Source: Agromyces protaetiae
Lineage (GTDB): Bacteria; Actinomycetota; Actinomycetes; Actinomycetales; Microbacteriaceae
Assembly: GCF_004135405.1 (NCBI RefSeq)
Contig: NZ_CP035491.1
Span: 372,001 to 436,000, forward strand
DNA: 64,000 nucleotides
Direction: 5' to 3'
The notes below the pieces were generated by a model. The model had not been told where the DNA came from. It was given only the letters and a program-made list of their open reading frames with translations, and ran no database searches. Position 1 is the stretch's first letter. Every line of letters begins with the position of its first letter. A program made the translations under genes and the position numbers. Below, piece after piece: positions 1-64,000 of the stretch.

Positions 1-54
1 GAGCGTCGAGCGGTGCACCGCGATGCGGGGGTCCTGTGCGATCACGGCGGCCAC
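1..54 (-). CDS. 5' end of an unidentified divergent gene (partial)
   Basis: A GTG at 54-52 opens an uninterrupted minus-strand frame to the window edge, translating as VAAVIAQDPRIAVHRSTL. Only 18 codons are visible, so no family can be assigned. The divergent position next to a DeoR regulator, with a TTTCG/CGAAA operator-like repeat in the gap, is the usual layout for a regulator and its sugar-metabolism target, so this may be the regulated gene (inference). The start codon and even the reality of the gene are uncertain. Confidence 0.3.
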   Translation of the reverse strand, partial: MAAVIAQDPRIAVHRSTL

Positions 55-60
55 GTTACG

Positions 61-98
61 TGACTTTCGTTTTCGAAACAACTCTTCTTTCGCATTGC
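61..98. promoter_or_regulatory. Putative DeoR-family operator
   Basis: The gap upstream of the DeoR regulator holds an AT-rich island in an otherwise very GC-rich sequence. It contains the inverted repeat TTTCG (65-69) and CGAAA (74-78) with a TTTT spacer, and another CTTTCG near 88-93. DeoR/AgaR-type regulators are known to bind repeated CTTTCGTTT-like units, so autoregulation and control of the divergent gene are plausible. Confidence 0.4.
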
Positions 99-129
99 AA
101 AGCCGCGGGCCACGCGGGAGAATCGGCGC

Positions 130-975
130 ATGCCCGAAGCGTTGGATGCCGTGAGTCGCCGCGAACTCGCGCTCGCCCTCGTCGTCGAGCGCGGCTTCGT
201 GCGGGTCGCCGACCTCGCGACGGCGTTCGGCGTCACGTCCGTCACGGCGCGCGCAGACCTCGACGTCCTCGAACGCGCGGGCGCCGTGCGCCGCGTCCAC
301 GGCGGCGCGGTGCCCGTCGCGATCGGCGTGAACGGCGCGGATGTCACGGCCGGCGCGCTGCTCGAGGCATCCGCCCGACCCGACCGCGAGCCGACCTTCG
401 AAGAAGCCCTCGAGACCTCGGTGCGCCCCAAGCGGCAGATCGGGGAAGCCGCCGCCGCCCTCGTCGCGAGCGGGCAGAGCCTCATCCTCGACGTCGGCAC
501 GACGACCCTGCAGATCGCCCGCGCGCTCCGCGCCCGCGCCGACCTCGACGACGTCACGATCTTCACCAACGGCCTCTCGATCGCCCTCGAGCTCGAACCC
601 GAGATCCCGCGCTTCACCGTGATCGTGACGGGCGGCACCCTCCGCCCCCGGCAGCACTCGCTCGTGCACCCGCTCGCGGGCTCGATGCTCGACGAGATCC
701 ACGTCGACCTCGCCTTCATCGGCTGCAACGGCGTCGACCCCGTGCACGGCGTCACGAACGCCAACCTGCCCGAGGCGCAGGTGAAGTCGCTCATGCTCCG
801 CGCCGCCGCGCGCGCCGTCGTCGTCGCCGACGGGTCGAAGCTCGGCGAGGCGCACCTCGGCCGCATCGCGCCCGTCGACGCGTTCGGCCTCTGCATCACC
901 GACGCCGCAGCCCCCGACGTGCTCGTCGCCGAGATCGAGGAGCAGGGGCTGCCGGTGCTGCGGGCGGGGGCCTGA
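130..975 (+). CDS. DeoR-family transcriptional regulator
   Basis: A 281-residue protein with the DeoR layout. The N-terminal winged helix-turn-helix (about residues 5-60) includes VRVADLATAFGVTSVTARAD and the RRVHGGA wing. The C-terminal sugar-phosphate sensor domain shows LILDVGTTTLQIA, a VTGGTLRP loop and the FIGCNGVD and VVVADGSKLGE motifs of the DeoRC fold. Such proteins repress sugar or polyol catabolic genes and release DNA on binding a phosphorylated sugar. The effector cannot be read from sequence. A GGGAG ribosome binding site about 9 nt before the ATG supports the start. A hairpin follows the stop codon. Confidence 0.9.
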   Translation: MPEALDAVSRRELALALVVERGFVRVADLATAFGVTSVTARADLDVLERAGAVRRVHGGAVPVAIGVNGADVTAGALLEASARPDREPTFEEALETSVRPKRQIGEAAAALVASGQSLILDVGTTTLQIARALRARADLDDVTIFTNGLSIALELEPEIPRFTVIVTGGTLRPRQHSLVHPLAGSMLDEIHVDLAFIGCNGVDPVHGVTNANLPEAQVKSLMLRAAARAVVVADGSKLGEAHLGRIAPVDAFGLCITDAAAPDVLVAEIEEQGLPVLRAGA

Positions 976-988
976 GCGGAAACGCGAA

Positions 989-1019
989 AGGCCCGGAACT
1001 TCCGCAGAAATCCGGGCCT
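989..1019. terminator. Bidirectional terminator hairpin between deoR-type gene and tRNA-Met
   Basis: Arms AGGCCCGGA (989-997) and TCCGGGCCT (1011-1019) form a 9-bp stem. On the minus strand the stem is followed by TTTCGCGTTT, so it probably ends the tRNA-Thr/tRNA-Met transcript; on the plus strand it lies just after the regulator stop codon. Confidence 0.65.
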
Positions 1020-1023
1020 GTTG

Positions 1024-1097
1024 TAGCGAGGGCGGGACTCGAACCCGCGACACCACGATTATGAGCCGTGTGCTCTAACCACCTGAGCTACCCCGCC
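1024..1097 (-). tRNA. tRNA-Met (anticodon CAT, elongator type)
   Basis: The minus strand folds as a full cloverleaf: acceptor GGCGGGG paired with CCTCGCT, D-arm GCTC/GAGC, anticodon loop CTCATAA with CAT, and T-arm GCGGG-TTCGAGT-CCCGC. The paired 5' end (G1-U72 rather than a C1/A72 mismatch) and the absence of three GC pairs in the anticodon stem argue against the initiator. CCA is not encoded. It lies 34 nt downstream of tRNA-Thr. Confidence 0.93.
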
Positions 1098-1240: not shown

Positions 1241-3175
1241 TCATCGGCCGTGCTCCGAACCGGTGGTCGGAACCGCGACGCCGGGCAGCCGCCAGGCCGC
1301 GAACGCGGGCCCGCCGGAAGAGATCGCGCACGTTCCGGATGTCTCGAGCCGCACGTCTCCGAAGGCTGCGAGCAGCTCGGGGTCGCCCACCAGCTGCGGC
1401 AGTGCGCCCGTGGCGAGCTCCACCGCAGACGCCGACCTGGCCGCGAAGACGAGCACCGAGGCATCCGCCGCTTCTCTGACGAACGCGACTGCGTCGTCGG
1501 TCGCCCCCACCCACCTGAGTCCGCCCGTCTGCAACGCGGGCTGCGCCCGCCGCAGGCCGAGGAGCGTGCGGTAGACGTCGAGCGTCTCGGCGACCTCAGG
1601 TTCCGCGACACGCGACCACGGGATGGGCGTGCGACTCGCCTCGCCGTCGACGCCCGTGAGCGCGAACTCGTCGCCCGCCCAGACGACTGGGATACCGGGC
1701 AGCGTCACCGAGAGGCCGAGCGCGACGGGCACCGTGCCGGGCCGGGCGTGCGTGAAGAATCGCGGGGTGTCGTGCGTGTCGAGCGCATTCATCGTCGCGA
1801 GGCGCGTGCGCCACGGAAACCCCGCCGCGAACGCCGTCTGCGCGTCGAGCATCTGCGGCGCCGTGAGCGTCGGCACCTGCGCACGGGCGAAGCCGAGGCC
1901 CCCGCCCGCAGGGCTGCCGGGCGTCTGCAGCCAGCTCCACAGCGGACGCGTGAACGCCGTGTAGGTCATCGCGCCGTGCCACGCGTCGCCCTGGAAGTCG
2001 GATGCCGCGTCGTTGGTCGATTCCCCGAGGAGGATCGTGTCGGGTTTGACGCCCAGCATCGTGCGACGGATCGTCTGCCGCACCTCGGCGTTGAGGTCGG
2101 TGCCGCCGAGGCGCCCCGTCATGTTGGCGACGTCGATGCGCCAGCCGTCGAGTCCGAACGGCTCGTTCAAGTAGCGAGCGACGACTGAGTCAGTGCCCTC
2201 GATGAACCGGCGGCGGAGCTCCTGCGACGACCAGTCGAACTTCGGCAGGCTCGGCACCCCGAGCCAGGACTCGTACGCACCATCCGGCCCGAAGTAGTAG
2301 AACCCGCGCTCGATCGACTCGGGGTCGGCCTGCGCCGTGCGGAACCATTCGTGCGCGTCGCCCGAGTGGTTCGAGGTGAGGTCGCCGATGACGCGGATGC
2401 CTCGGGCATGCGCCGCCTCGACGAGCCGCACGAGTGCGTCGTCGCCCCCGAGGAGGTCGTCGACGCGGTCGAACGTCGACGCGTCGTACCGGTGGTTCGA
2501 TCGCGCCGGGAAGACCGGGGTCAGGTAGAGCAGGTTCACGCCGAGCTCGACGAGGTGGTCGAGGCGTTCGCGCACGCCGTCGAGGTCGCCGCCGAAGATC
2601 TGCTGCGACCGGCCGGGCATCTCGGGGTCGACGGCGTCGTCCCAGTCGGCCGGGATGGCCCAGTCGGGTAGCTCGCCGCGCTCCCTGAGCACGTCGAAGG
2701 GCGCGCCTTCGGACTTCGCGAACCGGTCGGGGAAGACCTGGTAGAGCACGCTCGCCGCCGCCCAGTCGGGCGCGGGCGCATGCGCGACGAGCCGGAAGTC
2801 GTCGTCGTCGCGCGTCTCGACGAGTGACAGCCCCCGCTGGTTCACCCAGTGCTGACGGCCGTCGACGCCTGCAAGGAGCCACCGGTAGCCGTGCACGGGG
2901 TTCTCGACCTCGACTTCGGCTTCCCACCAGTCCCAGCCGTCACCCTCGCTCATCGAGCTTGTCGAAGGCCCGAGCCGCTCCGCTTCGCTGAACCGCGGCT
3001 CGCGATTCGGGTTCGACCTCGTGCCGACCCACGCGAGCCGGCCGATGGGCGTGCCGTCGGCGGCGGTCGCACCGGTGGGCACCCGCAGCCGAACCCGCAC
3101 GACCTCCCCAGCGCGGGCGTCTGGGTGGAGACGTGAAGCGGCGAGCCGTCGTGGTGCGGTGTCGTCATGGGCCAA
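1241..3175 (-). CDS. GH13 glycosidase (neopullulanase/maltodextrin-glucosidase type), probable N-terminal frameshift
   Basis: A cytoplasmic alpha-amylase-superfamily enzyme with no signal peptide. An N-terminal CBM34-like beta domain is followed by the (beta/alpha)8 barrel with the nucleophile in DGWRIDVANM (about residue 348), the acid/base in LLGES (about 383) and the transition-state Asp in DTHDTPR (about 470). Such enzymes hydrolyse short or cyclic maltodextrins. It is the last gene of the malE-malF-malG operon. The open frame begins at a weak TTG (3175), but an ATG at 3168 opens MTTPHHDGSPLHVSTQTPALG in another frame, which would join the conserved EVVRVRLRVP if one base were added at the C4 run 3106-3109. 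A short insertion near residues 70-80 contains a CCTTCGACAAGCTC repeat. Confidence 0.85.
   Translation of the reverse strand: MAHDDTAPRRLAASRLHPDARAGEVVRVRLRVPTGATAADGTPIGRLAWVGTRSNPNREPRFSEAERLGPSTSSMSEGDGWDWWEAEVEVENPVHGYRWLLAGVDGRQHWVNQRGLSLVETRDDDDFRLVAHAPAPDWAAASVLYQVFPDRFAKSEGAPFDVLRERGELPDWAIPADWDDAVDPEMPGRSQQIFGGDLDGVRERLDHLVELGVNLLYLTPVFPARSNHRYDASTFDRVDDLLGGDDALVRLVEAAHARGIRVIGDLTSNHSGDAHEWFRTAQADPESIERGFYYFGPDGAYESWLGVPSLPKFDWSSQELRRRFIEGTDSVVARYLNEPFGLDGWRIDVANMTGRLGGTDLNAEVRQTIRRTMLGVKPDTILLGESTNDAASDFQGDAWHGAMTYTAFTRPLWSWLQTPGSPAGGGLGFARAQVPTLTAPQMLDAQTAFAAGFPWRTRLATMNALDTHDTPRFFTHARPGTVPVALGLSVTLPGIPVVWAGDEFALTGVDGEASRTPIPWSRVAEPEVAETLDVYRTLLGLRRAQPALQTGGLRWVGATDDAVAFVREAADASVLVFAARSASAVELATGALPQLVGDPELLAAFGDVRLETSGTCAISSGGPAFAAWRLPGVAVPTTGSEHGR
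2955..2968 (-). repeat. CCTTCGACAAGCTC repeat inside the GH13 coding region
   Basis: This 14-mer (minus-strand reading) matches, with one difference, the two tandem copies at 59484-59511. Here it is translated as part of GPSTSSMS, a stretch that separates otherwise conserved segments of the N-terminal domain, consistent with insertion of a small repetitive element that keeps the frame open. Confidence 0.55.
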
Positions 3176-4150: not shown

Positions 4151-5778
<1,628 letters not shown>

Positions 5779-7255: not shown

Positions 7256-7330
7256 CTCACCGGCCGTCCGCAAAACCGGAAGCCGGCCTTCGATACCGGT
7301 TCGTGACCCATCGGATGTCTCCGTGCGACC

Positions 7331-7374: not shown

Positions 7375-9081
7375 ATGACTTCGGAATGGTGGCGCACCGC
7401 CGCGATCTACCAGATCTACCCGCGATCGTTCGCCGACAGCAACGGCGACGGCATCGGCGACCTGCCGGGCGTCACGGCTCGCCTCGGCTCGCTGCAGTCG
7501 CTCGGGATCGACGCCGTCTGGTTCTCGCCCTTCTACACGTCGCCCCAGAAGGACGCCGGCTACGACGTCGCCGACTACTGCGACATCGACCCGCTCTTCG
7601 GCACGCTCGCCGACTTCGACGCCATGCTCGAAGAGGCGCACGCACGAGGCATCCGCGTCATCGTCGACCTCGTCCCCAACCACTCGAGCGACCGGCACGT
7701 CTGGTTCCAGGCCGCGCTCGCGGCCGCCCCCGGCAGCGCCGAGCGCGCCCGCTACCTCTTCCGCGACGGCAAAGGCGCGACCGGCGAACTGCCCCCGAAC
7801 AACTGGGAGTCGGTCTTCGGCGGCCCCGCCTGGACACGCGTCGTCGAGGCCGACGGCAACCTCGGCCAGTGGTACCTCCACCTCTTCGACTCGTCGCAGC
7901 CCGACTTCGACTGGCACAACGAAGAGGTGCGCGAAGAATTCCGGCGCATCCTGCGCTTCTGGCTCGACCGGGGCGTCGACGGCTTCCGCGTCGACGTCGC
8001 CCACGGCCTCGTCAAGGCCGAAGGGCTCCCCGACTGGACGGCCGCCGAGGGCGCCGGCTCGATGGGCGGTGCCGGCGGCGAGGGCGTCCCGCTCGAACCC
8101 GAGATCAGCACCGAGCCCGGCGACGCCCCGCCGTACTGGGCGCAGGAGGGCGTGCACGAGATCTACCGCGACTGGCGGAAGGTGCTCGACGAATACCCCG
8201 GCGACCGCATCCTCGCCGCCGAGGCCTGGGTCGACCCGCTCTCGAAGGTCGCCAAGTGGGTGCGCCCCGACGAGATGCACCAGTCGTTCAACTTCGCCTA
8301 CCTCGAGACGCCGTGGAAGGCCGCAGCCCTCCGCAAGGTCATCGACGACTCGCTCGATGCGTTCGGCTCGGTCGGCGCCCCCTCGACCTGGGTGCTCTCG
8401 AACCACGACGTCGTCCGCCACGCGACGCGCCTCGCCGTGACCGCCGACAACCCCCAGGGCCACGGCCTCGGCCCGCGCTCGAAGGGCATCCCCGAGTACG
8501 CGACCGGCGTGCGCCGCGCCCGCGCCGCCACCGCCCTCATGCTCGCGCTGCCCGGCTCGGCCTACCTGTACCAGGGCGAGGAGCTCGGCCTGCCCGAGGT
8601 CATCGACCTGCCCAACGACGTCCGCCAAGACCCCACGTGGTTCCGCACCGACGGCGAGCGCTATGGACGAGACGGATGCCGCGTGCCCATCCCGTGGGAG
8701 GGCGACGTGCCGTCGTACGGCTTCGGGCCCTCGGATGCCTCGTGGCTGCCCCAACCCGCCCAATGGGCCGAGCTCGCCCGCGACAAGCAAGAAGGCGTCG
8801 CCGGATCGACCCTCTCCCTGTACCAGGCCGCCCTGCGGCTCCGCCGCGAGCACGCCCTCGGCTCGGGGACGCTCGTCTGGGCAGACGCACTCGGCGCCGG
8901 CCTCGACGTCCCCGCCGACGTCGTCGCGTTCCGCAACGGCGACGTCCTCGTCGTCGCGAACGCCGGCACGGCCGCAGTCGCGCTGCCCGCGGGCGAGGTC
9001 CTCCTCGCGTCGAACGAGCTCGGCGCCGGGGCATCCGGCTCTTCGCTGCCGCCCGACACGACCGTCTGGCTCCGCGCCTGA
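7375..9081 (+). CDS. GH13 alpha-glucosidase
   Basis: 568 residues, cytoplasmic. It starts with the oligo-glucosidase signature WWRTAAIYQIYPRSF and the calcium-type loop DSNGDGIGDLPG. Catalytic residues are visible: nucleophile in DGFRVDVAHG (about 201), acid/base in AAEAWVDP (about 281) and Asp in LSNHDVV (about 341). It would release glucose from the non-reducing end of imported maltodextrins; alpha-1,4 versus alpha-1,6 preference is not decided. The ATG at 7375 is chosen because TACAGT lies 6 nt upstream (leaderless arrangement); an in-frame ATG at 7357 would overlap that hexamer. Divergent from malE. Confidence 0.9.
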   Translation: MTSEWWRTAAIYQIYPRSFADSNGDGIGDLPGVTARLGSLQSLGIDAVWFSPFYTSPQKDAGYDVADYCDIDPLFGTLADFDAMLEEAHARGIRVIVDLVPNHSSDRHVWFQAALAAAPGSAERARYLFRDGKGATGELPPNNWESVFGGPAWTRVVEADGNLGQWYLHLFDSSQPDFDWHNEEVREEFRRILRFWLDRGVDGFRVDVAHGLVKAEGLPDWTAAEGAGSMGGAGGEGVPLEPEISTEPGDAPPYWAQEGVHEIYRDWRKVLDEYPGDRILAAEAWVDPLSKVAKWVRPDEMHQSFNFAYLETPWKAAALRKVIDDSLDAFGSVGAPSTWVLSNHDVVRHATRLAVTADNPQGHGLGPRSKGIPEYATGVRRARAATALMLALPGSAYLYQGEELGLPEVIDLPNDVRQDPTWFRTDGERYGRDGCRVPIPWEGDVPSYGFGPSDASWLPQPAQWAELARDKQEGVAGSTLSLYQAALRLRREHALGSGTLVWADALGAGLDVPADVVAFRNGDVLVVANAGTAAVALPAGEVLLASNELGAGASGSSLPPDTTVWLRA

Positions 9082-9234: not shown

Positions 9235-10983
9235 TCAGTTCGTGTTGTCGTACAGCCACTCGAGCGGGTCGACCCACTCGCCGTCGACCCCGCCGATGCG
9301 GATCTCGAAGTGGAGGTGGGGGCCGGTCGACATGCCGGTCGTTCCGGTGAGCCCGACGATGTCGGCGACCTTGACGGTGTCGCCGACCTCGAAGCGGCGC
9401 GAGCCGTACTGCATGTGCGCGTAGACGCTCGTGATGACCTGTCCGTCGATGACGTGGTCGATCATCGTGACGACGCCGAGCGAGTCGCCGTCGTCGGTCG
9501 AGACCGAGACGACGCCGTCGGCGATCGCCTGGATCTCGGCGCCGTAGCCGGGGTTGAAGTCCTGCCCGTGGTGGTCTTCGGAGCAGCCCGCGCAGTCGCG
9601 GTATCCGAAGCGGTCGCCGATGTGGACGCCGACGGCGAACGGCCACTGGATGGTGCCGTTGGGGTTGTTCGTGAAGGTCGCCTCGGGGCGGATGCCTGCG
9701 GCCGCGGCGTACTCTGCGATCGACTGGTGCTGGTAGCTCTCGACGCCGACCTGTTCGGCGATGATCGAGCCGCTGTCGAGGTCGACGCGCTGCCCGGGCC
9801 CACGTTCGGCGGTCTGCGATGCGAGCGCGAGCGCCTGCACGTCTTCGGGGCTCAGGAGCGACAGGGCGGGGATCGAGGTCGCAAGCGCCAGGGTGACCGC
9901 GAATCCCATGGCGGCGATCGCGCGCACCCCCTTGCTGCGACGGCCGGTCGCGGGGCGCGCGGGGGTCGCGGCGGATGCCTCGGGCTCGGGCGCTACGCGA
10001 CGGCCCGGTGCGACGCGCTGGTCGCGGCGGGCGGATGCCTCGGGGTACGCGGCCTCGGAACGCGCGGGCTCAGGGTGTGCGGGCTCGAACACCCCCGTCT
10101 CGACCGCCGCAGCCGCATCGCGCGCGGCGCGACGGCCGGATGCCTCGGTGCGGGCCTCAGAGCGACGGACCTCGCCCGGGGTAGAGGCCCCGAAGAGTTC
10201 GTCGAGCCCGCCGAAGGCCGAGACGTCGGCGGCGGCTACGGCCGAGACGTCGGAGGCGGCTATGGCCGAGACGTCGGAGGCGGCTACGGCCGAGACGTCG
10301 GAGGCCGTGGAAGCTGCGGGCTCGGGAATCGAGTCCGCCCCGATCTGTTCGGCGCCGCGTTCCTGCCGGCGTGCGGCGCGGCGAGAGAGGGCTGACGGGT
10401 GCGCGACGGCCGTGTGCTCAGCGGAAGCCGTCGGAACTGGAGCAGGAGCGAGTGCCGCGAGTCGAGCGTGCGTCGCCTGGTCGACCGGGGTGGTGAGCTC
10501 GAGACGGGTCGGGCGCTGCGCCGATGCCCCGATCCGGGCGGCGATGTCGGCGTCCACGGCCGAACCGACAGACTGCGCCGTGACGTCGGTCTCCGTCGTG
10601 GGCCGTCCCGCGACCGGAGTCTGCGCCGCGGACTGCAGCAGCGCCTCGAATCCGGCTCCGTCTGTGACGGAATGCGGTGAGGCCGGGCGGCGGTCGCGGC
10701 GGCGACTCGGCTGCTCGGCCTCGGGAATCGTGGTGCGGTCGATGTGCGAGAAGTGCGAAGGGGCCTGCGCGATCGGCGCCTGCGCCGGAGCCACGGGCAT
10801 CGCGGGCGTCGCGGGCATCGCCGCAGCCGGAGTCGCCGTCGGTGTCCACCCCGCGACGGCCTGCGTCGCGGTCGCCGCTTGCTCGCGCTCCCGGATCTCT
10901 CGCCTTGTGAGGGGTCGCTCAGCCCGCACGGGAGACTGAGTGCCTGGCGCGGAACCGTCGGGCACGAGGGGGGACTCGAGCAC
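9235..10983 (-). CDS. Secreted or membrane-anchored M23 (LytM-type) metallopeptidase
   Basis: About 582 residues from a GTG at 10983; the open frame extends to 11139 and the true start is uncertain. A long Pro/Ala/Ser-rich cytoplasmic segment contains the TRREIREREQ motif often seen at the start of such actinobacterial proteins. One transmembrane helix (GVRAIAAMGFAVTLALATS) leads to a C-terminal M23 domain with HHGQDF, the VSV..DDGDSLGVVTMIDH strand and the zinc-binding HLHFEI. It would cleave peptidoglycan cross-links outside the membrane. The region 10216-10306 holds four 24-bp direct repeats giving DVSA-x-AA units. Confidence 0.8.
   Translation of the reverse strand: MLESPLVPDGSAPGTQSPVRAERPLTRREIREREQAATATQAVAGWTPTATPAAAMPATPAMPVAPAQAPIAQAPSHFSHIDRTTIPEAEQPSRRRDRRPASPHSVTDGAGFEALLQSAAQTPVAGRPTTETDVTAQSVGSAVDADIAARIGASAQRPTRLELTTPVDQATHARLAALAPAPVPTASAEHTAVAHPSALSRRAARRQERGAEQIGADSIPEPAASTASDVSAVAASDVSAIAASDVSAVAAADVSAFGGLDELFGASTPGEVRRSEARTEASGRRAARDAAAAVETGVFEPAHPEPARSEAAYPEASARRDQRVAPGRRVAPEPEASAATPARPATGRRSKGVRAIAAMGFAVTLALATSIPALSLLSPEDVQALALASQTAERGPGQRVDLDSGSIIAEQVGVESYQHQSIAEYAAAAGIRPEATFTNNPNGTIQWPFAVGVHIGDRFGYRDCAGCSEDHHGQDFNPGYGAEIQAIADGVVSVSTDDGDSLGVVTMIDHVIDGQVITSVYAHMQYGSRRFEVGDTVKVADIVGLTGTTGMSTGPHLHFEIRIGGVDGEWVDPLEWLYDNTN
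10216..10306. repeat. Four tandem 24-bp repeats inside the M23 peptidase gene
   Basis: Units start at 10216, 10240, 10264 and 10288 with core GGCCGAGACGTCGG; the last unit is incomplete. The unit length is a multiple of three, so copy number changes would only lengthen the disordered linker. Confidence 0.85.
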
Positions 10984-16600: not shown

Positions 16601-16662
16601 ACCGCGCACTCGAGACATCCGTACGCACTGCTCTGCTGCCCCCGCTCGCTAGACTTTCCCGC

Positions 16663-51916: not shown

Positions 51917-52522
51917 TCAGGCGCCCTCGCCCTGGAGTCCCGTGACGATCGTCGAGAGGATCGAGGCATCCTTCAACTGACCGAGGATGCGCGCCGCGAC
52001 GCGGCCCTCGCGGTCGAGCACGAGCGTCGTCGGCACGGCGGCCGGGGGCACCTTGCCCGCGAACGCGAGCTGCACTCGGCCCTCGTCGGTGTCGAGGATC
52101 GACGGGTAGGTGATGCCGAACTTCTCCTCGAAGGGCGCGGCGGTGCCCGCCTGGTCGCGCACGTTGACGCCGACGAACGCGACGTCTTCGCCGAACTGCT
52201 CGTGCACCTCTTGGAGGATAGGCGCTTCGACGCGGCACGGGGCGCACGCCGCGTACCAGAAGTTCACGACCATGACCTTGCCGTCTTGCTCGGCCGAGTC
52301 GAACTCGAGGCCGTCGACGGTCTCGCCCGAGAACTCGACGGGGGCCTCGCGATTCTCGGGGGCGAACTCGGCGATCGTGCCGTCGCCCGCGATGTAGTTC
52401 TTGCCGCTGCCCTCGCGGTACTGTTCGGCGAGCGGATCCGACGAGCAGCCCGTCAGGAGCAGCGCCGCCGAGACGCCGATCGCTGCGAACGCGGTCGCGG
52501 CACGAGACATCCGGTGCTTCAT
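51917..52522 (-). CDS. TlpA/ResA-type thioredoxin lipoprotein
   Basis: 201 residues. The signal peptide ends in LLTGC (Cys26), so it is a lipoprotein. The redox motif is CAPC in [17 protein letters not shown] (about 88-100), with the cis-proline in [15 protein letters not shown]. It would reduce apocytochrome c before haem attachment. The ATG overlaps the stop codon of the upstream histidine phosphatase gene by one base (TGATG). Confidence 0.93.
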
Positions 52523-54497: not shown

Positions 54498-55442
54498 ATG
54501 GGGGCCGAGCCGACGCGGATGGTCCGCCTCGCGGGCGGGCGCTTCCGCATGGGCTCAGACGAGCAGCCCGACGAGGGGCCCGTGCACGAGCGCGAGGTGG
54601 GCGCGTTCGCGATCGATGCGCACCCCGTCACGAACGAGCAGTTCGCGGCGTTCGTCGAAGCGACGGGGTACGTGACGGTCGCCGAACGGGCGCTCGATCC
54701 GACCGACTTCCCCGGCGCCGATCCAGCCGACCTCGTGCCGGGCGGGCTCGTGTTCACGCCGACTGCGGGCCCGGTCGATCTGCGGGACTGGCGACAGTGG
54801 TGGCGGTGGGTTCCCGGCGCGAACTGGCGAGTCCCGTTCGGTCCCGACGGCGGCGTCGACGCGGTCTCGGAGCGGCTGCGGCATCCCGTCGTCCAGGTGA
54901 GCTACGCGGATGCCTCGGCGTACGCGTCGTGGGCCGGGAAGCGCCTGCCGACCGAGGCCGAAGCCGAGTTCGCGGCGCGAGGCGACCTCGACGGCGCCCG
55001 CTTCGCGTGGGGCGACGACGAGTTCCCGCGCGACGCCGAGCACCCCCGCGGCAGGCTCATGGTCAACCGCTGGCAGGGCTCGTTCCCGTACCTCAACACG
55101 GGGGCGGCGGGGTTCGTCGGCACGTCGCCCGTCGGCACGTTCCCGCCCAACGGCTACGGACTGTCGGATGTCACGGGCAACGTGTGGGAGTGGACGACCG
55201 ACTTCTATGCACCGCGGCACCTCGTGCCGGGCGAGACCCCGGTCGACGCGGGCGCCAGGGGCAACCTGCTCGCCGAGACATCCGCCGAACCGGGCTCGCG
55301 CATCCCGCGCCGCGTGCTCAAGGGCGGCTCTCACCTGTGCTCGCCCGACTACTGCCTGCGCTACCGGCCGGCGGCCCGCTCGCCGCAGGCGGAGGACACG
55401 GCGACGACCCACATCGGGTTCCGCTGCGCGGCCGACACGTGA
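54498..55442 (+). CDS. Formylglycine-generating enzyme (sulfatase-modifying factor)
   Basis: 314 residues covering the whole FGE-sulfatase fold: VRLAGGRFRMGSD, HPVTNEQFAAFV, VQVSYADASAYASWAGKRLPTEAE, TGNVWEWTTDFY and GGSHLCSPDYCLRYRPAARS with both active-site cysteines of aerobic FGE. It converts a cysteine in Cys-x-Pro-x-Arg sulfatases to formylglycine. No sulfatase is in the window, so its target lies elsewhere. TAGGGT lies 6 nt before the ATG. Confidence 0.92.
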   Translation: MGAEPTRMVRLAGGRFRMGSDEQPDEGPVHEREVGAFAIDAHPVTNEQFAAFVEATGYVTVAERALDPTDFPGADPADLVPGGLVFTPTAGPVDLRDWRQWWRWVPGANWRVPFGPDGGVDAVSERLRHPVVQVSYADASAYASWAGKRLPTEAEAEFAARGDLDGARFAWGDDEFPRDAEHPRGRLMVNRWQGSFPYLNTGAAGFVGTSPVGTFPPNGYGLSDVTGNVWEWTTDFYAPRHLVPGETPVDAGARGNLLAETSAEPGSRIPRRVLKGGSHLCSPDYCLRYRPAARSPQAEDTATTHIGFRCAADT

Positions 55443-55742: not shown

Positions 55743-55812
55743 CGTCTCAGGCTACGCGCCCGCGCGCTCGGCAGGCGCGCTGCCGAGACATCCGCCCGCC
55801 CGGAAACGACGA

Positions 55813-56089: not shown

Positions 56090-56599
56090 ATGCCCGCTTC
56101 CGAACTCGTCATCCGCACGACCCGCGAAGACGACTGGCAGGCGGTCCGGGCGCTCCGACTCGAGATGCTGCGCGACTTCCCGCTCGCCTACGGCGAGACC
56201 CTCGAGCACGCGTTGCGCGTCGAGGAGCAGGGCTGGCGCGGGCGCGCCCGGCGCGGCGAGAGCGAGGGGCAGACGTCGGTCGTCGCGATCGAGGGCGAGC
56301 GCTGGGTCGGGCACATGGGCGGGTACATTCCGGATGCCTCGACCGGCCCTCTGCTCGTGAGCGTCTACGTCGCACCCGACCGTCGCGGCGACTCGCACGG
56401 CGTCTCACGCGCCCTCCTCGCCGAAGTCGAACGGTGGGCTGCCGGGTTCGGCGGGACGCTCCGGCTCGAGGTCCACGAGCGCAACCCGCGCGCGATCGCG
56501 TTCTACGAGAAGGTCGGCTTCCACCTCACGGGCGCAAGCCGACCGTACGAACTCGAGCCCGGCGGGCGCGAACTCGAGATGATCAAGCGGCTCGCGTAA
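56090..56599 (+). CDS. GNAT-family N-acetyltransferase
   Basis: 169 residues. Acetyl-CoA fold landmarks: the N-terminal strand LVIRTTREDDWQAVRALRLE, VSVYVAPDRRGDSHGVSRAL (motif A, slightly atypical GDSHG for the usual R-G-x-G-x-G/A) and RNPRAIAFYEKVGFHLTG (motif B). Substrate unknown. Convergent with and directly abutting the ArsR gene. Confidence 0.88.
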   Translation: MPASELVIRTTREDDWQAVRALRLEMLRDFPLAYGETLEHALRVEEQGWRGRARRGESEGQTSVVAIEGERWVGHMGGYIPDASTGPLLVSVYVAPDRRGDSHGVSRALLAEVERWAAGFGGTLRLEVHERNPRAIAFYEKVGFHLTGASRPYELEPGGRELEMIKRLA

Positions 56600-57077: not shown

Positions 57078-58562
57078 ATGACACACGCGTTCGGTGGAGT
57101 CGTCGGGAGGGGACGCGTGACTCGAGTCAGCTCGCCCGCCCTGAGAGGGCGTCCCGAGAGCAAGACGTGGCTGGGGCGCATCCGGGATGCGATCGACCAT
57201 CTCGCCCGTCATTCGCCGTCGCGATTCGCGATCCTCATCTTCGCCGGGCTCGTGCTCGTCTTCACGCTCCTGTTCTCCCTGCCGATCGCACGAGCGGGAG
57301 ACACGGCGACCCCGCTCCACGATGCGCTCTTCACGGCCGTCTCGGTCATCTGCGTCACGGGCCTCGCGACCGTCGACATGGCGACGTACTGGTCGCCGTT
57401 CGGCAACGCGCTCGTGTTCATCGGCGTCAACATCGGCGGCGTCGGCGTGCTGACCCTCGCGACGACGCTCGGCCTCGTCATCTCGCGTCGCCTGGGCCTC
57501 CGCGCGAAGCTCATGGCCGCGAGCGACACGAACCCGTCGCGCCTGCACGCCGGGCCGGTGTCGGAGCGGCAGGCCGTACGCCTCGGCGAGGTCGGAGGCC
57601 TCCTCGCGACCGTCGCGATCAGCGCCCTCGTCATCGAGGGGGCGATCGCGCTCCTGCTCCTCCCGAGCATGTTCGCTGCCGGCTACGACCCGCTGCATTC
57701 GATCTGGTACGCGTTCTACTACTCGGCGATGGCGTTCACGAACACGGGCTTCAACCCCAACCCGGGCGGGCTCGATCCGTTCCAGCACGACTACTGGATG
57801 CAGTCGCTCCTGCTCGCGGGTGTATTCCTCGGCAGCCTCGGCTTCCCGGTCATCTTCGCGCTCGCGCGCGGGTGGAGGCATCCGCACCGCTGGAGCGTGC
57901 ACGTGAAGCTCACGCTCACGACGACGATCATCCTGTTCTTCCTCGGCGCCCTCGTGTTCCTCGTCCTCGAGTACAACAACCCCGAGACCTACGGCAAGCT
58001 CGACGCCGGCGGAACGGTGTTCCAGTCGTTCTTCATATCCGGGATGACTCGATCGGGCGGGTTCGCGACGATCGACATGCACGCCCTCAACGGGTCGAGC
58101 CAGCTCGTCGCGAGCATGCTCATGTTCGTCGGCGGCGGCTCGGCGTCGACCGCGGGCGGCATCAAGGTCACGACCCTCGCGGTGCTGTTCCTCGCGGCGT
58201 TCGCCGAGGCGCGCGGCCAGCAGTCGATGGAGGCGTTCGGACGACGCATCCCCCGAGACATCCTGCGCCTCTCGGTGAGCGTGGTGCTGTGGGGCGCGAC
58301 GATCGTCGCCGTCGCCTCGGTGCTCATCCTGCAGATCACGAAGGCGCCGTTCGAGAACGTGCTCTTCGACGTCATTTCGGCGTTCGCGACGTGCGGCCTG
58401 TCGACGGGCCTCACCGCGTCGCTGCCGCCCGAGGGCGTCTACATCATGTCGGCGACGATGTTCATGGGCCGCGTCGGCACCGTGACGCTCGCCGCGGCGC
58501 TCGCCGCGAGCCAGCGCCGACAGCTGTTCAAACGACCGGAAGAGAGGCCCATCGTTGGTTGA
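57078..58562 (+). CDS. ktrB: Potassium uptake membrane subunit, KtrB/TrkH type
   Basis: 494 residues from ATG 57078 (GGGGAG 4 nt upstream), or 481 from GTG 57117 (GGGAGGGG upstream); both starts are plausible. Four M1-P-M2 repeats carry the selectivity-filter glycines: SVICVTGLATVD, AMAFTNTGFNP, GMTRSGGFATID and FATCGLSTGL. It is the K+-translocating subunit working with the KtrA protein encoded next. The stop overlaps the ktrA start by 8 nt. Confidence 0.93.
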   Translation: MTHAFGGVVGRGRVTRVSSPALRGRPESKTWLGRIRDAIDHLARHSPSRFAILIFAGLVLVFTLLFSLPIARAGDTATPLHDALFTAVSVICVTGLATVDMATYWSPFGNALVFIGVNIGGVGVLTLATTLGLVISRRLGLRAKLMAASDTNPSRLHAGPVSERQAVRLGEVGGLLATVAISALVIEGAIALLLLPSMFAAGYDPLHSIWYAFYYSAMAFTNTGFNPNPGGLDPFQHDYWMQSLLLAGVFLGSLGFPVIFALARGWRHPHRWSVHVKLTLTTTIILFFLGALVFLVLEYNNPETYGKLDAGGTVFQSFFISGMTRSGGFATIDMHALNGSSQLVASMLMFVGGGSASTAGGIKVTTLAVLFLAAFAEARGQQSMEAFGRRIPRDILRLSVSVVLWGATIVAVASVLILQITKAPFENVLFDVISAFATCGLSTGLTASLPPEGVYIMSATMFMGRVGTVTLAAALAASQRRQLFKRPEERPIVG

Positions 58563-59223: not shown

Positions 59224-59541
59224 CGGTTCGAGGAATTCAGGATGCCTCGACCACACGGTCGCGCCTGCGTGGCGGCCTCCGCCGCCACCAGACGCATCTG
59301 CGTCTGGCAAGCTCCCATTCCGATCACGCGTCCCCGACTCACCACCCCCCCACGCATGGTGTCGCCGCGCGGAGCGGCGGCACTTCGGCACCGCGGCATG
59401 CAGACCCTGCGATCCGCTGATCCAGAACTGCGGATGCTTCACGCCCACCGGCACTTCGGCACCGCGCGCCAGGAGCGGAACCCCCTTCGACAGGCTCCCT
59501 TCGACAGGCTCAGGGACATCCGTCCTGACGGATCCGTTCGG
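59224..59541. repeat. Repeat-rich intergenic region between ktrA and the ABC exporter
   Basis: 318 nt with no convincing gene. It holds a hairpin GTGGCGGC/GCCGCCAC (59269-59288), a second stem CCAGACGCA/TGCGTCTGG (59288-59307), an 18-bp direct repeat CGGCACTTCGGCACCGCG at 59378 and 59449, and two exact tandem copies of CCTTCGACAGGCTC (59484-59511). Confidence 0.7.
59484..59511 (+). repeat. Tandem CCTTCGACAGGCTC repeat
   Basis: Two abutting 14-bp copies. A one-base variant lies inside the GH13 gene at 2955-2968 in the opposite orientation. Confidence 0.8.
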
Positions 59542-59581: not shown

Positions 59582-60538
59582 ATGACGACAGTGATCGACG
59601 CGCGCGGCCTCGAGAAGCGATTCGGCCGCGCCACCGCCCTCGACGGACTCGACCTCCGGGTCGACGCGGGCGAAGTGCACGGATTCCTGGGCCCGAACGG
59701 CGCCGGCAAGTCCACGACCATCCGCATCCTCCTCGGCCTCGCGCGCGCCTCGGGCGGCACCGCCGCGGTCTTCGGCGACAACCCCTGGGCGCACGCGGCA
59801 TCCCTCCACCGCCGCATCGCGTACGTGCCGGGCGACGTGAGCGTCTGGCCCAACCTTTCGGGTGGCGAGGCGATCGACCTGCTCTCGCGCCTGCGCGGCG
59901 GCACGCACGACAAGGCCGCGTACGCCGCCGAGCGCGCACGGCTCGTCGAAGCGTTCGAGTTCGACCCGCGCAAGAAGGGCCGCGCCTACTCGAAGGGCAA
60001 CCGGCAGAAGGTCGCGCTCATCGCGGCGTTCGCGACGCCCGCCGACCTGTACATCCTCGACGAGCCGACGAGCGGCCTCGACCCGCTCATGTCGCAGGTC
60101 TTCACGAAGGAGGTCGACCGGGTCGCCAAAGAGGGCGCGACCGTGCTGCTGTCGAGCCACATCCTCTCCGAGGTCGAAGACCTCTGCGACCGGGTCAGCA
60201 TCATCCGCGCGGGCAAGGTCGTCGAGTCGGGCACGCTCGCAGACCTGCGGCACCTGACGCGCACCGAGATCGCGTTCGTGCACGACACAGCACAGGATGC
60301 CTCGGTGCGGGCGATCCCCGGAACGAACGACCTGGTCGTCGACGCGGGCCGCGTGCGGTTCACGGTCGACAGCGACCACGTGCCATCCGTGCTCCCCGAA
60401 CTCGCCCGCCTCGAAGTCAAAGGCCTCACCGTCACCCCGCCGACCCTCGAGGAGCTCTTCCTCCGCCACTACGGCGACCGGATCGAGGCATCCGGGCCCG
60501 CCGACGCCGACCCGACCGAGGCCGGTGCCCGCTCATGA
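59582..60538 (+). CDS. ABC exporter ATPase
   Basis: 318 residues. Walker A GPNGAGKSTT (about 38), the signature region YSKGNRQKVALIAAFA, Walker B LYILDEPTSGLDP and the H-loop LLSSHILSEVEDL define a drug/antibiotic-exporter-type ATPase (CcmA/DrrA group). Its ATG is 7 nt from a -10 hexamer. It pairs with the permease encoded next (ATGA overlap). Confidence 0.92.
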   Translation: MTTVIDARGLEKRFGRATALDGLDLRVDAGEVHGFLGPNGAGKSTTIRILLGLARASGGTAAVFGDNPWAHAASLHRRIAYVPGDVSVWPNLSGGEAIDLLSRLRGGTHDKAAYAAERARLVEAFEFDPRKKGRAYSKGNRQKVALIAAFATPADLYILDEPTSGLDPLMSQVFTKEVDRVAKEGATVLLSSHILSEVEDLCDRVSIIRAGKVVESGTLADLRHLTRTEIAFVHDTAQDASVRAIPGTNDLVVDAGRVRFTVDSDHVPSVLPELARLEVKGLTVTPPTLEELFLRHYGDRIEASGPADADPTEAGARS

Positions 60539-62157: not shown

Positions 62158-62183
62158 CCGGTCGCGGATGAAAGACTGAGTGG

Positions 62184-62657
62184 ATGCCTCGCGACGAGCA
62201 CGCCCTGCGCGCCGCGGTCGAACAATCGGCCGCGGTGCTCACGGCTGCCGGGTTCCCCAAGATGCCGGCGCGCGTGCTCATGTCGCTCGCCGTCGCCGAG
62301 CGTGGCGGCAAGACGGCCGCCGAGCTCGCCGACGAACTCACGGTGAGCCCGGCCGCGATCTCGGGGGCGGTGCGCTATCTGCAGACGGTGGGAATCATCC
62401 ACCGCATCCCGCAGCCCGGCAGCCGTCGCGACAAGTGGGAGCTCCTCGACGACGCCTGGTACTCGACGCTCGTGGCGAAGAGCCCCGTGTACGCGGCGAT
62501 CTCGGCGCTCTCCGACAAGCTCGCCGACGCGATCGGCGACGACGATTCGCCGCCCGGGGCCCGCACTCGCGAGATGGCGAGGTTCTACCGGTTCATCGAC
62601 CGCAAGATGCCCGAGCTGCTGCGCGACTGGGAGGACGAGCGAGGCTCGGTCGGGTGA
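62184..62657 (+). CDS. MarR/GbsR-type transcriptional regulator
   Basis: 157 residues. The winged HTH is KMPARVLMSLAVAERGGKTAAELADEL followed by TVSPAAISGAVRYLQTVG and wing IHRIPQPGSRRDKWEL. The family often represses the transporter operon it belongs to. The gene starts 26 nt after the permease; AAGACT 6 nt before the ATG could give it an additional promoter. It probably binds the palindrome at 59543 (inference). Confidence 0.87.
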   Translation: MPRDEHALRAAVEQSAAVLTAAGFPKMPARVLMSLAVAERGGKTAAELADELTVSPAAISGAVRYLQTVGIIHRIPQPGSRRDKWELLDDAWYSTLVAKSPVYAAISALSDKLADAIGDDDSPPGARTREMARFYRFIDRKMPELLRDWEDERGSVG

Positions 62658-62702
62658 GCAGTAAGACGGCGGATTCGGCGTAGTGTCCGGCTTTCGATTG
62701 GA

Positions 62703-63128
62703 TCACCGCGTGAGCTCGAGGATCGTGCCCGTCGCAAGCGCCACGACGCCGATCGAGGCGAGCACGATGCCGAGGGTGCGGAGGATGCGCCGCCCGATCG
62801 GCCGTTCGTTGAGCCGTACGTGCCCGGGGTCGCGCTCGCAGTAGAAGGCGGGCTGCTCGTCGCGGTTCACGACGTGCGCGAACTCCTGTTCGTCGAGCTC
62901 ACGCTCGTGGAACTCGCCGCCCGCGAACCAGCGGACGAGCGCGGGGAGGGAGTCGGGGTCGAGTTGGCCCGGCGTTCCGCCGCCGCCCGTGACAACGGCG
63001 TCGGTCGGGAGCCATCGCCCATCGACGAGTCGGATCAGCAGCGCGATGAGGAGGCACAGCACGCCGACCGAGAGGGCGATCCAGCCGATGACCTCGGCGA
63101 TCCCCGAGACGACGTCGGATGGGTGCAC
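62703..63128 (-). CDS. Membrane protein of unknown function
   Basis: 141 residues with a hydrophobic helix near each end (IGWIALSVGVLCLLIALLI and LRTLGIVLASIGVVALATG) and a polar middle containing WFAGGEFHERELDEQEFAHV. No domain recognised. The GTG follows TAGCGT by 6 nt. It lies downstream of the DUF402 gene on the same strand. Confidence 0.75.
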   Translation of the reverse strand: MHPSDVVSGIAEVIGWIALSVGVLCLLIALLIRLVDGRWLPTDAVVTGGGGTPGQLDPDSLPALVRWFAGGEFHERELDEQEFAHVVNRDEQPAFYCERDPGHVRLNERPIGRRILRTLGIVLASIGVVALATGTILELTR

Positions 63129-63174
63129 GGGGCAACGCTATCGGCTCCGTGAGGGACCCGCCCGGCGACGCGAT

Positions 63175-63729
63175 TCAGCCGGCGAGCGCACGCAGCACCG
63201 CGAACCAGCGCGCGGGCGTCGCCTCGTCGAAGGGCGGCTCGCGCCGCTCGACGGCCCTGAGCAGTGCCGCGGCGTGGGCCTCGGTCCGTTCGACGACGAC
63301 GTCGGGGTAGCCGAACTTCGCGCGGTGTTCGGCGAACTCGTCCTCGTCGTCGAGGTAGACCGATCCGTCGCCGCGCTCGATGACGTCGAGGTCGAGGTCG
63401 ATCATCGAGACCGTCGTGCCCGTGGCATCCGCCGTCCACTCGGGCGTCGTCGTGAGGTCGACGTAGACGCGCGTGCCGCGCGGGTGCCCGAGGTTGAAGG
63501 CGGGCGTCCAGCCCGCGTCGGGGAAGAGCGAGACGGTCTCCCACTCGGAGTCGAACTGCCAGCCCGGCCGGTCGTAGTGCGTGCCCGCGGGGAACCCGAC
63601 CCACTCGCCGTGCTCGTCGCGCCCGAGCCGGACGCCGTCGTAGTGCCAGTGCCGCGTGCCGTCCCACTTGCGGTAGCGGACGCGCACGAGCGCGCCGGGT
63701 TCGGCGGGACGCTCCGCGGGGTCGGTCAC
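63175..63729 (-). CDS. DUF402-family protein
   Basis: 184 residues. The start VRVRYRKWDGTRHWHYDGVRLG, WVGFPAGTHYDRPG, the NLGHPRGTRVYVDLTTTPEW and IDLDLDVIERGDGSVYLDDEDEFAE segments match DUF402, a fold seen in nucleoside phosphatases and FomD. Exact role unknown. The GTG follows TAGGCT by 6 nt. Confidence 0.85.
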   Translation of the reverse strand: MTDPAERPAEPGALVRVRYRKWDGTRHWHYDGVRLGRDEHGEWVGFPAGTHYDRPGWQFDSEWETVSLFPDAGWTPAFNLGHPRGTRVYVDLTTTPEWTADATGTTVSMIDLDLDVIERGDGSVYLDDEDEFAEHRAKFGYPDVVVERTEAHAAALLRAVERREPPFDEATPARWFAVLRALAG

Positions 63730-63751
63730 GGGTCGAGCCTACGCCGCGTGC

Positions 63752-64000
63752 TCAGACGAGGGCGCCGAGTCGGTCGGCCAGGCGTTCGGTCACGAGAGCG
63801 CGGAACGCGGGATGCTCCGCCGCAGCCCCACCCAGGAGGTCGAGGAGTCCCGCGGCGAGGGCCGGGGCATCCGTCGACCCGCCGACCTGCGACGACGCGA
63901 CGATCACCGCGAGTTCGGCGGCGCGCCCGTCGGCGATCGGCTCGCCGGCATCGACGCGCGCGACGAGGAACGCGGCCCACGCCGCGACGGCCTCGGCGAC
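63752..64000 (-). CDS. C-terminus of a mannitol dehydrogenase/fructuronate reductase-like protein (partial)
   Basis: The last 82 codons of a minus-strand gene that runs off the window. The reading VAAWAAFLVARVDAGEPIAD and ALAAGLLDLLGGAAAEHPAF resembles the helical C-terminal domain of the polyol dehydrogenase family. Identification from this fragment alone is tentative. Confidence 0.55.
   Translation of the reverse strand, partial: VAEAVAAWAAFLVARVDAGEPIADGRAAELAVIVASSQVGGSTDAPALAAGLLDLLGGAAAEHPAFRALVTERLADRLGALV

What the first reader, a model, noticed from the sequence alone, without database searches (positions are those of the whole stretch)
1..64000. A 9-mer, GGATGYCTC, occurs about once per kilobase on both strands and in several reading frames
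Counting by eye I find about 65 copies of GGATGCCTC or GGATGTCTC (36 on the plus strand, about 30 on the minus strand); base composition alone predicts roughly one. Examples: 364(-), 1337(+), 2395(+), 8733(+), 9973, 10033, 10138(+), 15649(+), 25328(+)/25341(-), 35445(+), 44270(+), 49254(-), 60295(+)/60485(-). Within genes it is read as DAS, EAS, DVS, ETS or RGI depending on strand and frame, and it also occurs between genes (16612, 19621, 27134, 29722, 55785, 59240). It often extends to CGGATGYCTCGG. It uses codons GAT, GCA and TCC that are otherwise scarce. Frame-independent enrichment points to selection at DNA level: an uptake-type word, chromosome-organising site, a repair or methylation motif like HIP1, or a biased mutational product.
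Basis: partly seen in the sequence, partly recalled or inferred. Interest (0 to 1): 0.8.

Follow-up and report, generated by a model that had tools for sequence, protein, structure and literature searches.

The report
Genome-wide DNA watermark word in Agromyces
A soil bacterium and its relatives carry one short DNA word thousands of times, chosen over equivalent spellings at more than half of the places where proteins allow it and kept by evolution, which looks like a species watermark for recognising self DNA.

Summary
Confirmed and extended. The window (inferred to be Agromyces, Microbacteriaceae) holds 67 GGATGYCTC (1.6 expected); its genome holds 2699. The word beats synonymous-codon shuffles in every reading phase (289 vs 14.0 in 420 kb coding), is 2.5-fold denser between genes, and fills 289 of 520 sites where the protein permits it (56%; shuffle 3%). 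Between two relatives at 94% identity the rare codons spelling it are kept (GAT 45 of 48 inside words, 87 of 282 elsewhere). All 60 Agromyces genomes searched carry the core GGATGYCNC. Position 8 is a dialect letter: T here, G in near relatives, differing in place at 9 of 16 shared sites (background 0.03). Milder forms occur in Microbacterium, Leifsonia and Cryobacterium, not Arthrobacter. No replication-strand skew. Best reading: an uptake-type self-recognition word (DUS/USS-like) with an unidentified reader protein. Against a plain DUS: type IVa pilus ATPase PilB is in only 8 of 60 Agromyces genomes and tracks word density loosely; comEC is near universal; uptake is untested. Chi, polar sites, C5-methyltransferase origin and codon bias are disfavoured. 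My paper searches found no description.

The parts
364..372 (-). GGATGCCTC
1337..1345 (+). GGATGTCTC
1458..1466 (-). GGATGCCTC
2395..2403 (+). GGATGCCTC
5215..5223 (+). GGATGCCTC
7313..7321 (+). GGATGTCTC, intergenic
7646..7654 (-). GGATGCCTC
8733..8741 (+). GGATGCCTC
9973..9981 (+). GGATGCCTC
10033..10041 (+). GGATGCCTC
10138..10146 (+). GGATGCCTC
11580..11588 (+). GGATGCCTC
11988..11996 (+). GGATGTCTC
13617..13625 (-). GGATGTCTC
13747..13755 (-). GGATGCCTC
15649..15657 (+). GGATGCCTC
16173..16181 (-). GGATGTCTC
16220..16228 (-). GGATGCCTC
16612..16620 (-). GGATGTCTC, intergenic
19621..19629 (+). GGATGCCTC, intergenic
20498..20506 (+). GGATGCCTC
21521..21529 (+). GGATGTCTC
22035..22043 (-). 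GGATGCCTC
24456..24464 (-). GGATGTCTC
25328..25336 (+). GGATGTCTC, left arm of an inverted pair that can fold as a 9-bp stem
25341..25349 (-). GGATGCCTC, right arm of that inverted pair
25698..25706 (-). GGATGCCTC
27134..27142 (+). GGATGTCTC, intergenic
28570..28578 (+). GGATGCCTC
29722..29730 (-). GGATGCCTC, intergenic
30959..30967 (+). GGATGTCTC, first unit of a degenerate 18-bp array
30995..31003 (+). GGATGCCTC, third unit of that array
31595..31603 (+). GGATGCCTC
31962..31970 (-). GGATGTCTC
33296..33304 (+). GGATGTCTC
34251..34259 (+). GGATGCCTC
34899..34907 (+). GGATGTCTC
35445..35453 (+). GGATGCCTC
35662..35670 (-). GGATGTCTC, end unit of an 18-bp array 35658-35727
35716..35724 (-). GGATGCCTC, other end unit of that array
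37940..37948 (+). GGATGCCTC
40489..40497 (-). GGATGCCTC
41810..41818 (+). GGATGCCTC
44270..44278 (+). GGATGCCTC
44730..44738 (-). GGATGCCTC
45915..45923 (-). GGATGCCTC
47519..47527 (+). GGATGCCTC
49073..49081 (+). GGATGTCTC
49254..49262 (-). GGATGCCTC
49759..49767 (-). GGATGCCTC
50241..50249 (+). GGATGCCTC
51754..51762 (+). GGATGCCTC
51963..51971 (-). GGATGCCTC
52504..52512 (-). GGATGTCTC
52930..52938 (+). GGATGCCTC
53957..53965 (-). GGATGTCTC
54111..54119 (-). GGATGCCTC
54908..54916 (+). GGATGCCTC
55275..55283 (-). GGATGTCTC
55785..55793 (-). GGATGTCTC, intergenic
56332..56340 (+). GGATGCCTC
57875..57883 (-). GGATGCCTC
58255..58263 (-). GGATGTCTC
59240..59248 (+). GGATGCCTC, intergenic
60295..60303 (+). 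GGATGCCTC
60485..60493 (-). GGATGCCTC
62182..62190 (+). GGATGCCTC, at a gene edge

Best explanation
The word is a genome-wide recognition site, (C)GGATG-Y-C-[T/G]-C(G), that a sequence-specific DNA-binding factor of Microbacteriaceae reads as a mark of self DNA. Shown here: the excess, its independence of frame and strand, the conservation of the codons that spell it, occupancy of more than half of the permitted sites, lineage dialects, and in-place differences at position 8. Inferred: that a protein reads the word, that the switch ran from G to T, and that the process is DNA uptake. A plausible uptake machine is the Tad (Flp) pilus with ComEA/ComEC, as in Micrococcus luteus; this genome has two tadA-bearing loci and a comEA-comEC pair. 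The reader protein is unknown.
For: 2699 copies in 3.68 Mb, 1371:1328 by strand; top of 4505 frequent 9-mers against synonymous shuffle. Excess in all six codon phases, 289 vs 14.0. Word in 289 of 520 protein-permitted sites (0.556; shuffle 0.033; three control words 0.002-0.023); permitted peptides themselves 2.08-fold up, controls 0.91-1.46. One-letter variants of positions 1-5 under-represented (65 vs 142 expected), those of positions 6-8 over-represented: strict core, tolerant 3' half. Rare codons kept inside words between G423 and G431; 88 of 126 words shared against 51 of 129 for six usable controls. Dialects. Position 8: T here at 9 of 16 shared sites with G in G402, background 0.029, p 1e-10. 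Close inverted pairs 13 inward vs 3 outward; densest between convergent genes, 2.84 per kb. Long form scarce in six Microbacterium phages, 7 in 229 kb vs 190 in 520 kb of Microbacterium loci. comEA, comEC, two tadA, a TadE by Pfam. Density, dialects, fixed core and inverted pairs match DUS as described in PMC3630211.
Against: PilB of type IVa pili, the DUS/USS machine, is in only 8 of 60 Agromyces genomes; two of the 8 (G139, G400) have the fewest words, though the other six are among the 18 richest by count. In the family PilB genomes are richer (p 7e-8 in all 199, 0.011 in those of 2.5 Mb or more, no phylogenetic correction), but 6 of the 22 richest lack it and 27 of the 91 poorest have it. 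ComEC is in 195 of 199 genomes, word-poor ones included. Spacing after merging clusters is random (CV 0.87 vs 0.88), not even. In the three-genome comparison the visible loss rate of words (15 lost, 68 kept in all) is not clearly below that of control 9-mers (14 lost, 46 kept); the contrast lies mainly in fewer singletons (7 vs 50). One of six control sets was as conserved (13 of 19). The short core CGGATGC is above expectation in two of six phages. No reader protein was found, and the eight papers listed do not mention Agromyces.
Confidence: 0.48

Rival explanations
1. HIP1-like: a DNA methyltransferase that reads the GGATG core, coupled to a methylation-directed mismatch repair, creates and maintains the word without any uptake function.
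For: HIP words in cyanobacteria are frequent, have alternates by lineage and go with orphan methyltransferases (PMC4390886 abstract). The strict part here is a 5-6 base core with a tolerant flank. Y at position 6 could be decay of a methylated C (inference).
Against: HIP words are palindromic, this is not. No C5 methyltransferase hit in this genome or 27 others of 60 Agromyces genomes, all with the core. The unit is 9-11 bases, long for a methyltransferase (recalled). Adenine/N4 methyltransferases were not searched.
Confidence: 0.15
2. Binding site of an orientation-blind nucleoid or chromosome-organising protein.
For: Genome-wide, strand-symmetric, denser between genes, 18-bp arrays that could seat neighbouring protomers.
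Against: Random spacing; about three-fold variation in density between species of one genus; none in a 20 kb stretch with a GC-poor island; I recall no nucleoid protein with such a site.
Confidence: 0.13
3. Chi-type recombination hotspot recognised by RecBCD/AddAB/AdnAB, or a KOPS-type pointer.
For: Over-represented non-palindromic chromosomal word, long form scarce in phages.
Against: Chi and KOPS are skewed to the leading strand (recalled); here 178 leading and 194 lagging in 464 kb, with oriC placed by the parS cluster at 852-857 kb and the terminus assumed opposite (sums by hand).
Confidence: 0.07
4. Neutral product: codon-pair preference or a context-dependent mutation bias.
For: GC-rich genomes have strong codon and context biases; other Microbacteriaceae show moderate excess of unrelated words.
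Against: All six phases and intergenic DNA are enriched, and 50 synonymous shuffles reach at most 26 vs 289; rare codons conserved inside the word far more than elsewhere; T here for G in G402 at 9 of 16 shared sites against 0.029 in general.
Confidence: 0.05

Closest known systems
DNA uptake sequence (DUS) of Neisseriaceae, read by minor pilin ComP
   Same: Non-palindromic word of about ten bases in thousands of copies (about 1900 in 2.2-2.3 Mb in N. meningitidis, PMC3630211; here 2699 in 3.68 Mb), both strands, fixed core with lineage dialects, permissive and intergenic sites preferred, inverted pairs able to form stem-loops.
   Different: Actinobacteria; core CGGATG instead of CTG; type IVa pilus ATPase absent from 52 of 60 Agromyces genomes; no ComP-like reader found; uptake not shown; T and G forms coexist in many genomes.
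Uptake signal sequence (USS) of Pasteurellaceae
   Same: 9-base core, both strands, similar density, family-wide with variants (recalled).
   Different: USS has AT-rich flanks and is said to be evenly spaced (recalled); here spacing is random and flanks carry little signal beyond C at -1 and G at +9.
HIP1 and alternate HIPs of cyanobacteria
   Same: Frequent genome-wide word with lineage alternates.
   Different: HIPs are palindromic and go with orphan methyltransferases (PMC4390886 abstract); here non-palindromic and no C5 methyltransferase hit in 28 of 60 genomes.
Chi sites
   Same: Over-represented non-palindromic chromosomal word.
   Different: No leading-strand skew here; longer word; dialect difference between near relatives.
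Flp/Tad pilus plus ComEA/ComEC transformation system of Micrococcus luteus (PMC4322843)
   Same: Two tadA-bearing loci and a comEA-comEC pair are in the window's genome.
   Different: The term 'uptake sequence' occurs 0 times in that paper; Micrococcaceae sampled here (17 Arthrobacter/Pseudarthrobacter loci) lack the word; M. luteus itself was not examined.

Membership tests
DUS/USS uptake word | short non-palindromic word in hundreds to thousands of copies far above expectation | tested here: met
DUS/USS uptake word | no strand preference overall or by replication arm | tested here: met
   1371:1328; 178 leading, 194 lagging
DUS/USS uptake word | lineage dialects around an invariant core | tested here: met
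DUS/USS uptake word | inverted pairs able to form stem-loops near gene ends | tested here: met
   13 inward vs 3 outward pairs under 60 bp; 6 of the 13 not inside one gene, 7 inside; 2 of 3 folded examples beat all 200 shuffles, the window pair is matched by 8 of 200
DUS/USS uptake word | scarce in foreign DNA | tested here: inconclusive
   CGGATGYCNCG 7 in 229 kb of six Microbacterium phages vs 190 in 520 kb of Microbacterium loci, but phage Efeko has 3 in 17.5 kb and the short core is above expectation in Efeko and Min1; the phages' own hosts were not compared. L016 with a type I restriction island: no GGATGYCTC, 4 GGATGYCNC in 20 kb
DUS/USS uptake word | type IVa pilus machine in word-bearing genomes | tested here: not met
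   PilB-type match in 8 of 60 Agromyces genomes; G021 and G054 with 2753 and 3146 CGGATGYCNCG lack it
DUS/USS uptake word | word raises DNA uptake or transformation in the living cell | not testable with these tools
   needs an experiment
DUS/USS uptake word | a dedicated reader protein (ComP or the like) | not tested
   no candidate found; only some tad, pil and com genes identified
HIP1 | palindrome | tested here: not met
   GGATGYCTC is not its own complement
HIP1 | orphan methyltransferase for the word | tested here: inconclusive
   PF00145 absent in G000 and 27 more of 60; other methyltransferase families not searched
Chi | leading-strand skew | tested here: not met
   178:194

The most novel reading that the evidence does not exclude
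The first sequence-specific DNA uptake (self-recognition) system of Gram-positive bacteria: a family-wide word of Microbacteriaceae, with species dialects, read not by a type IVa minor pilin but by a component of the Tad pilus or ComEA route or by a wholly new reader, strong enough to dictate codon choice at more than half of the protein-permitted sites and to shift amino-acid use.
Probability: 0.33. Interest if true: 0.92.

Novelty: new variant of a known kind. Interest (0 to 1): 0.82.

Why it matters
As far as I recall, uptake words of this anatomy are documented only in Neisseriaceae and Pasteurellaceae. One in Actinobacteria, with dialects across many genera and without the usual pilus in most Agromyces carriers, would mean that DNA self-recognition evolved again with another reader, would give a ready measure of who exchanges DNA with whom in a large soil and plant-associated family, and offers a natural experiment, the change of letter at position 8, on how a whole genome follows its reader. 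If it is not uptake, it is an unknown genome-wide recognition system that overrides codon usage.

Tried and rejected
Type IVa pilus as the necessary machine: PilB presence against word density in 199 Microbacteriaceae and 60 Agromyces; associated loosely, not required. ComEC as predictor: near universal. C5 methyltransferase: no hit in 28 of 60. Replication polarity: none. Even spacing as in USS: not found. Density against codon score: my two gene callers disagree (0.98 falling to 0.28 per kb; no clear trend), so I claim nothing. A surplus of blocks with 3 or more mismatches at word sites between this genome and G402 may be misalignment and is not used. The automatic backwards-word control contains TAG and is biased low, so synonymous shuffles were used instead.

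Gene calls: the first caller missed an ABC-transporter gene at about 33.6-36.6 kb of the window and covered only 235 of 403 kb of the Arthrobacter set; the second recovers that gene. The main counts hold under both. I at first took the + strand ORF 41138-48055 for a gene; NCBIfam finds nothing in it and both callers choose the minus strand.

Papers: PMC3630211 passages and section 11 seen; PMC4322843 passages; PMC4390886 abstract and outline; all others search listings only. The statement that no description was found rests in this open-licence library; listings were capped (one search returned 1198 papers with one of the 9-10-mers, 20 listed, none on this; one search listed 15 of 4161).

Full report
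What was checked. GGATGYCTC occurs 67 times in the window, 37 on + and 30 on -, against 1.6 expected. The window is bases 372001-436000 of a single 3,683,091-base contig that holds 1371 + 1328 copies; the word read backwards has 8.

Anatomy. In 464 kb of this genome (the window plus 20 stretches of 20 kb) there are 372 copies; the logo is C(76%)-GGATG-Y(C 65%)-CTC-G(89%)-G(56%) with little signal beyond. Against synonymous shuffles, single-letter variants in the first five letters are under-represented (65 seen, 142 expected over positions 1-5), variants at positions 6, 7 and 8 are over-represented (28 vs 5.6, 47 vs 17.0, 200 vs 63.5) and those at position 9 little (14 vs 9.5). So GGATG is strict and the 3' half tolerant.

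Not codon usage. With the second gene caller (426 genes, 419.9 kb coding, 44.1 kb between genes) coding DNA holds 289 words; 50 synonymous shuffles give 14.0 on average and at most 26. By phase, observed/expected: +0 4/0.3, +1 11/0.6, +2 129/6.1, -0 112/2.4, -1 30/4.5, -2 3/0.1. Intergenic density is 1.75 per kb (77 copies), coding 0.69; between convergent genes 2.84 (14 copies). The first caller gave 272 vs 12.4 and 93 intergenic copies. GAGGCATCC is the most over-represented of 4505 9-mers seen at least 20 times in coding DNA. Counting only places where the encoded protein allows the word by synonymous choice, it is present at 289 of 520 (0.556) against 0.033 after shuffling; three control words stand at 0.023, 0.002 and 0.015. 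The permitted peptides are 2.08 times as frequent as after permuting codons within genes (1.46, 0.91 and 1.25 for the controls). The same measure for GGATGYCGC is 0.419 in four G-dialect Agromyces, 0.301 in 22 Microbacterium loci and 0.100 (shuffle 0.084) in 17 Arthrobacter/Pseudarthrobacter loci.

Kept by evolution. G423 and G431 are 94.4% identical over 153.9 kb. They share 88 of 126 words of the T or G form; of seven control 9-mer sets one had no site, and the other six share 51 of 129, ranging from 1 of 6 to 13 of 19 (sums by hand). Inside words the rare codons are kept: GCA 17 of 24 against 45 of 229 elsewhere (p 5e-7), GAT 45 of 48 against 87 of 282 (p 3e-17), TCC 23 of 23 against 393 of 586 (identical against synonymous change; non-synonymous pairs, 0, 1 and 2 inside words, left out) (first caller). 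Of two altered-word controls, the one with the first two letters changed shows no effect (GAT 2 of 9), the one that keeps GGATG a weak one for GAT (24 of 42 against 108 of 288, p 0.018). With G424 as a third genome, 68 of 114 words are in all three (controls 46 of 166); with G424 as outgroup words show 15 losses and 7 gains, controls 14 losses and 50 gains. The loss rate alone is therefore not clearly lower than for average 9-mers; what stands out is that a word built of rare codons, which elsewhere turn over fast, is kept at least as well as average sequence.

Dialects. All 60 Agromyces genomes searched have GGATGYCNC, 1642 to 5415 copies. The share with T at position 8, by hand for the ten genomes in both, is 57% here, 54% in G362, 40% G021, 33% G153, 31% G139, 19% G371, 17% G193, 13% G054, 11% G299, 10% G345. 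In sampled stretches the near relatives G402, G054, G432 and G299 have 0.88-1.05 G forms and 0.08-0.15 T forms per kb, against 0.22 and 0.80 here. At sites aligned between the window and G402 where the rest of the core is kept in both and G402 has G, this genome has T in 9 of 16, G in 5, C in 2; the general rate of T here for G there is 0.029 (p 1e-10). Sites with A in G402 mostly stayed A (4 of 5). The other three relatives, not independent, give T at 6 of 10, 4 of 10 and 4 of 7. That G is the older letter is inferred from its prevalence in Microbacterium. In 22 Microbacterium loci the core CGGATGC is 3.2-fold over shuffle in genes (608 vs 190.4) and 103 vs 25.7 between genes, with forms GGATGYCGC, CGGATGCTG and GACGGATG; nine Cryobacterium, Leifsonia and Salinibacterium loci show GACGGATG 77 vs 6.9 in genes; 17 Arthrobacter/Pseudarthrobacter loci show next to nothing (CGGATGC 99 vs 69.5 in genes, 44 vs 48.5 between). 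Over 199 Microbacteriaceae genomes CGGATGYCNCG ranges from 0 to 3146, lowest in small genomes of 0.7-2 Mb and in two of 2.8-2.9 Mb (G493, G559); among 396 genomes of the order, no genome outside family f1 passes about 120 GGATGYCTC, read by eye. These patterns see only Agromyces-like forms, so low counts elsewhere do not exclude other dialects.

What it is not. The parS cluster at 852-857 kb marks the origin; with the terminus assumed opposite, the sampled words lie 178 on the leading and 194 on the lagging strand (from, by hand), so Chi or KOPS-type polarity is absent. C5 methyltransferases (PF00145) are found in 32 of 60 Agromyces genomes and not in this one, which speaks against a HIP1 model with such an enzyme; other methyltransferases were not searched. 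Six Microbacterium phages have 7 CGGATGYCNCG in 229 kb, 22 Microbacterium loci 190 in 520 kb; but the short core CGGATGC is above expectation in Efeko (14 vs 3.5) and Min1 (22 vs 12.9), near it in the other four (9 vs 5.3, 7 vs 8.2, 8 vs 5.4, 9 vs 8.8), and five of the six phages were picked through one terminase search.

What it is most like. Non-palindromic length, strand balance, density (0.73 per kb; about 1900 DUS in 2.2-2.3 Mb in N. meningitidis, PMC3630211 section 11), single-letter dialects round a fixed core, preference for permissive and intergenic sites and inverted pairs (13 inward, 3 outward within 60 bp; three examples folded, two beat all of 200 shuffles, the window pair at 25328-25349 is matched by 8 of 200) are marks of uptake words. 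The genome has a comEA-comEC pair and two tadA-bearing loci by Pfam, and a type IVa pilus cluster whose ATPases and two pilins are by Pfam and the rest by eye; Micrococcus luteus transforms with two tad clusters and comEA/EC (PMC4322843 passages).

What speaks against uptake. A PilB-type ATPase (best E under 1e-100) is in 8 of 60 Agromyces; the two word-poorest of the 60 (G400, G139) are among those 8, the other six are among the 18 richest by count. In the family the association is positive but loose: 100 of 199 have PilB, median 0.072 vs 0.023 per kb (p 7e-8), and for genomes of at least 2.5 Mb 0.080 vs 0.031 (p 0.011), no phylogenetic correction; 6 of the 22 richest lack it and 27 of the 91 poorest have it. 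So the type IVa pilus may help or travel with the word but is not needed. ComEC is in 195 of 199 and explains nothing. The reader protein is unknown, and no uptake experiment was found.

Verdict. A recognised word under genome-wide selection or drive is close to certain; that it is an uptake word is the best of several readings.

Noticed in passing
window 30952-31004 and 35658-35727; L017 near 9533; L008 near 3807; L011 near 695: Copies of the core GGATGYCNC often lie on one strand exactly 18, 36, 54 or 72 bp apart (21, 9, 5 and 3 pairs in 464 kb), in genes and between genes, as degenerate 9/18-bp minisatellites whose spacers often differ; local duplication that keeps the word, or a spacing preference of a reader.
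   Followed up: partly
L016 (G000:C1:2944001-2964000), about 8-20 kb: GC-poor island with type I restriction genes (HsdR, HsdM by Pfam); the whole 20 kb stretch has no GGATGYCTC and 4 GGATGYCNC.
   Followed up: partly
window 12151-13335: IS481-family transposase (NCBIfam); no word inside it.
   Followed up: no
window 41138-48055 (+) and 41657-47971 (-): Very long antiparallel open frames; codon statistics choose the minus strand, yet the plus frame gives weak tblastn hits, two of four over pullulanase genes, perhaps antisense alignment.
   Followed up: partly
G000:C1:1487860-1500600 (L008, L228): Type IVa pilus cluster in an actinobacterium (PilB, PilT ATPases and two pilins by Pfam, further pil genes by eye), patchy in the genus: PilB in 8 of 60.
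   Followed up: partly
L190, L188 (G460, G478); L177, L184 (G483, G505); L189 (G448): Other words are moderately over-represented in other Microbacteriaceae (GCTGCTCG, CGTGCTCG, GGATCC contexts); codon context or other recognition words.
   Followed up: no
L077: A contig labelled Stenotrophomonas maltophilia P13 carries a metH 84% identical to the one in the window, so that contig is likely actinobacterial contamination.
   Followed up: no
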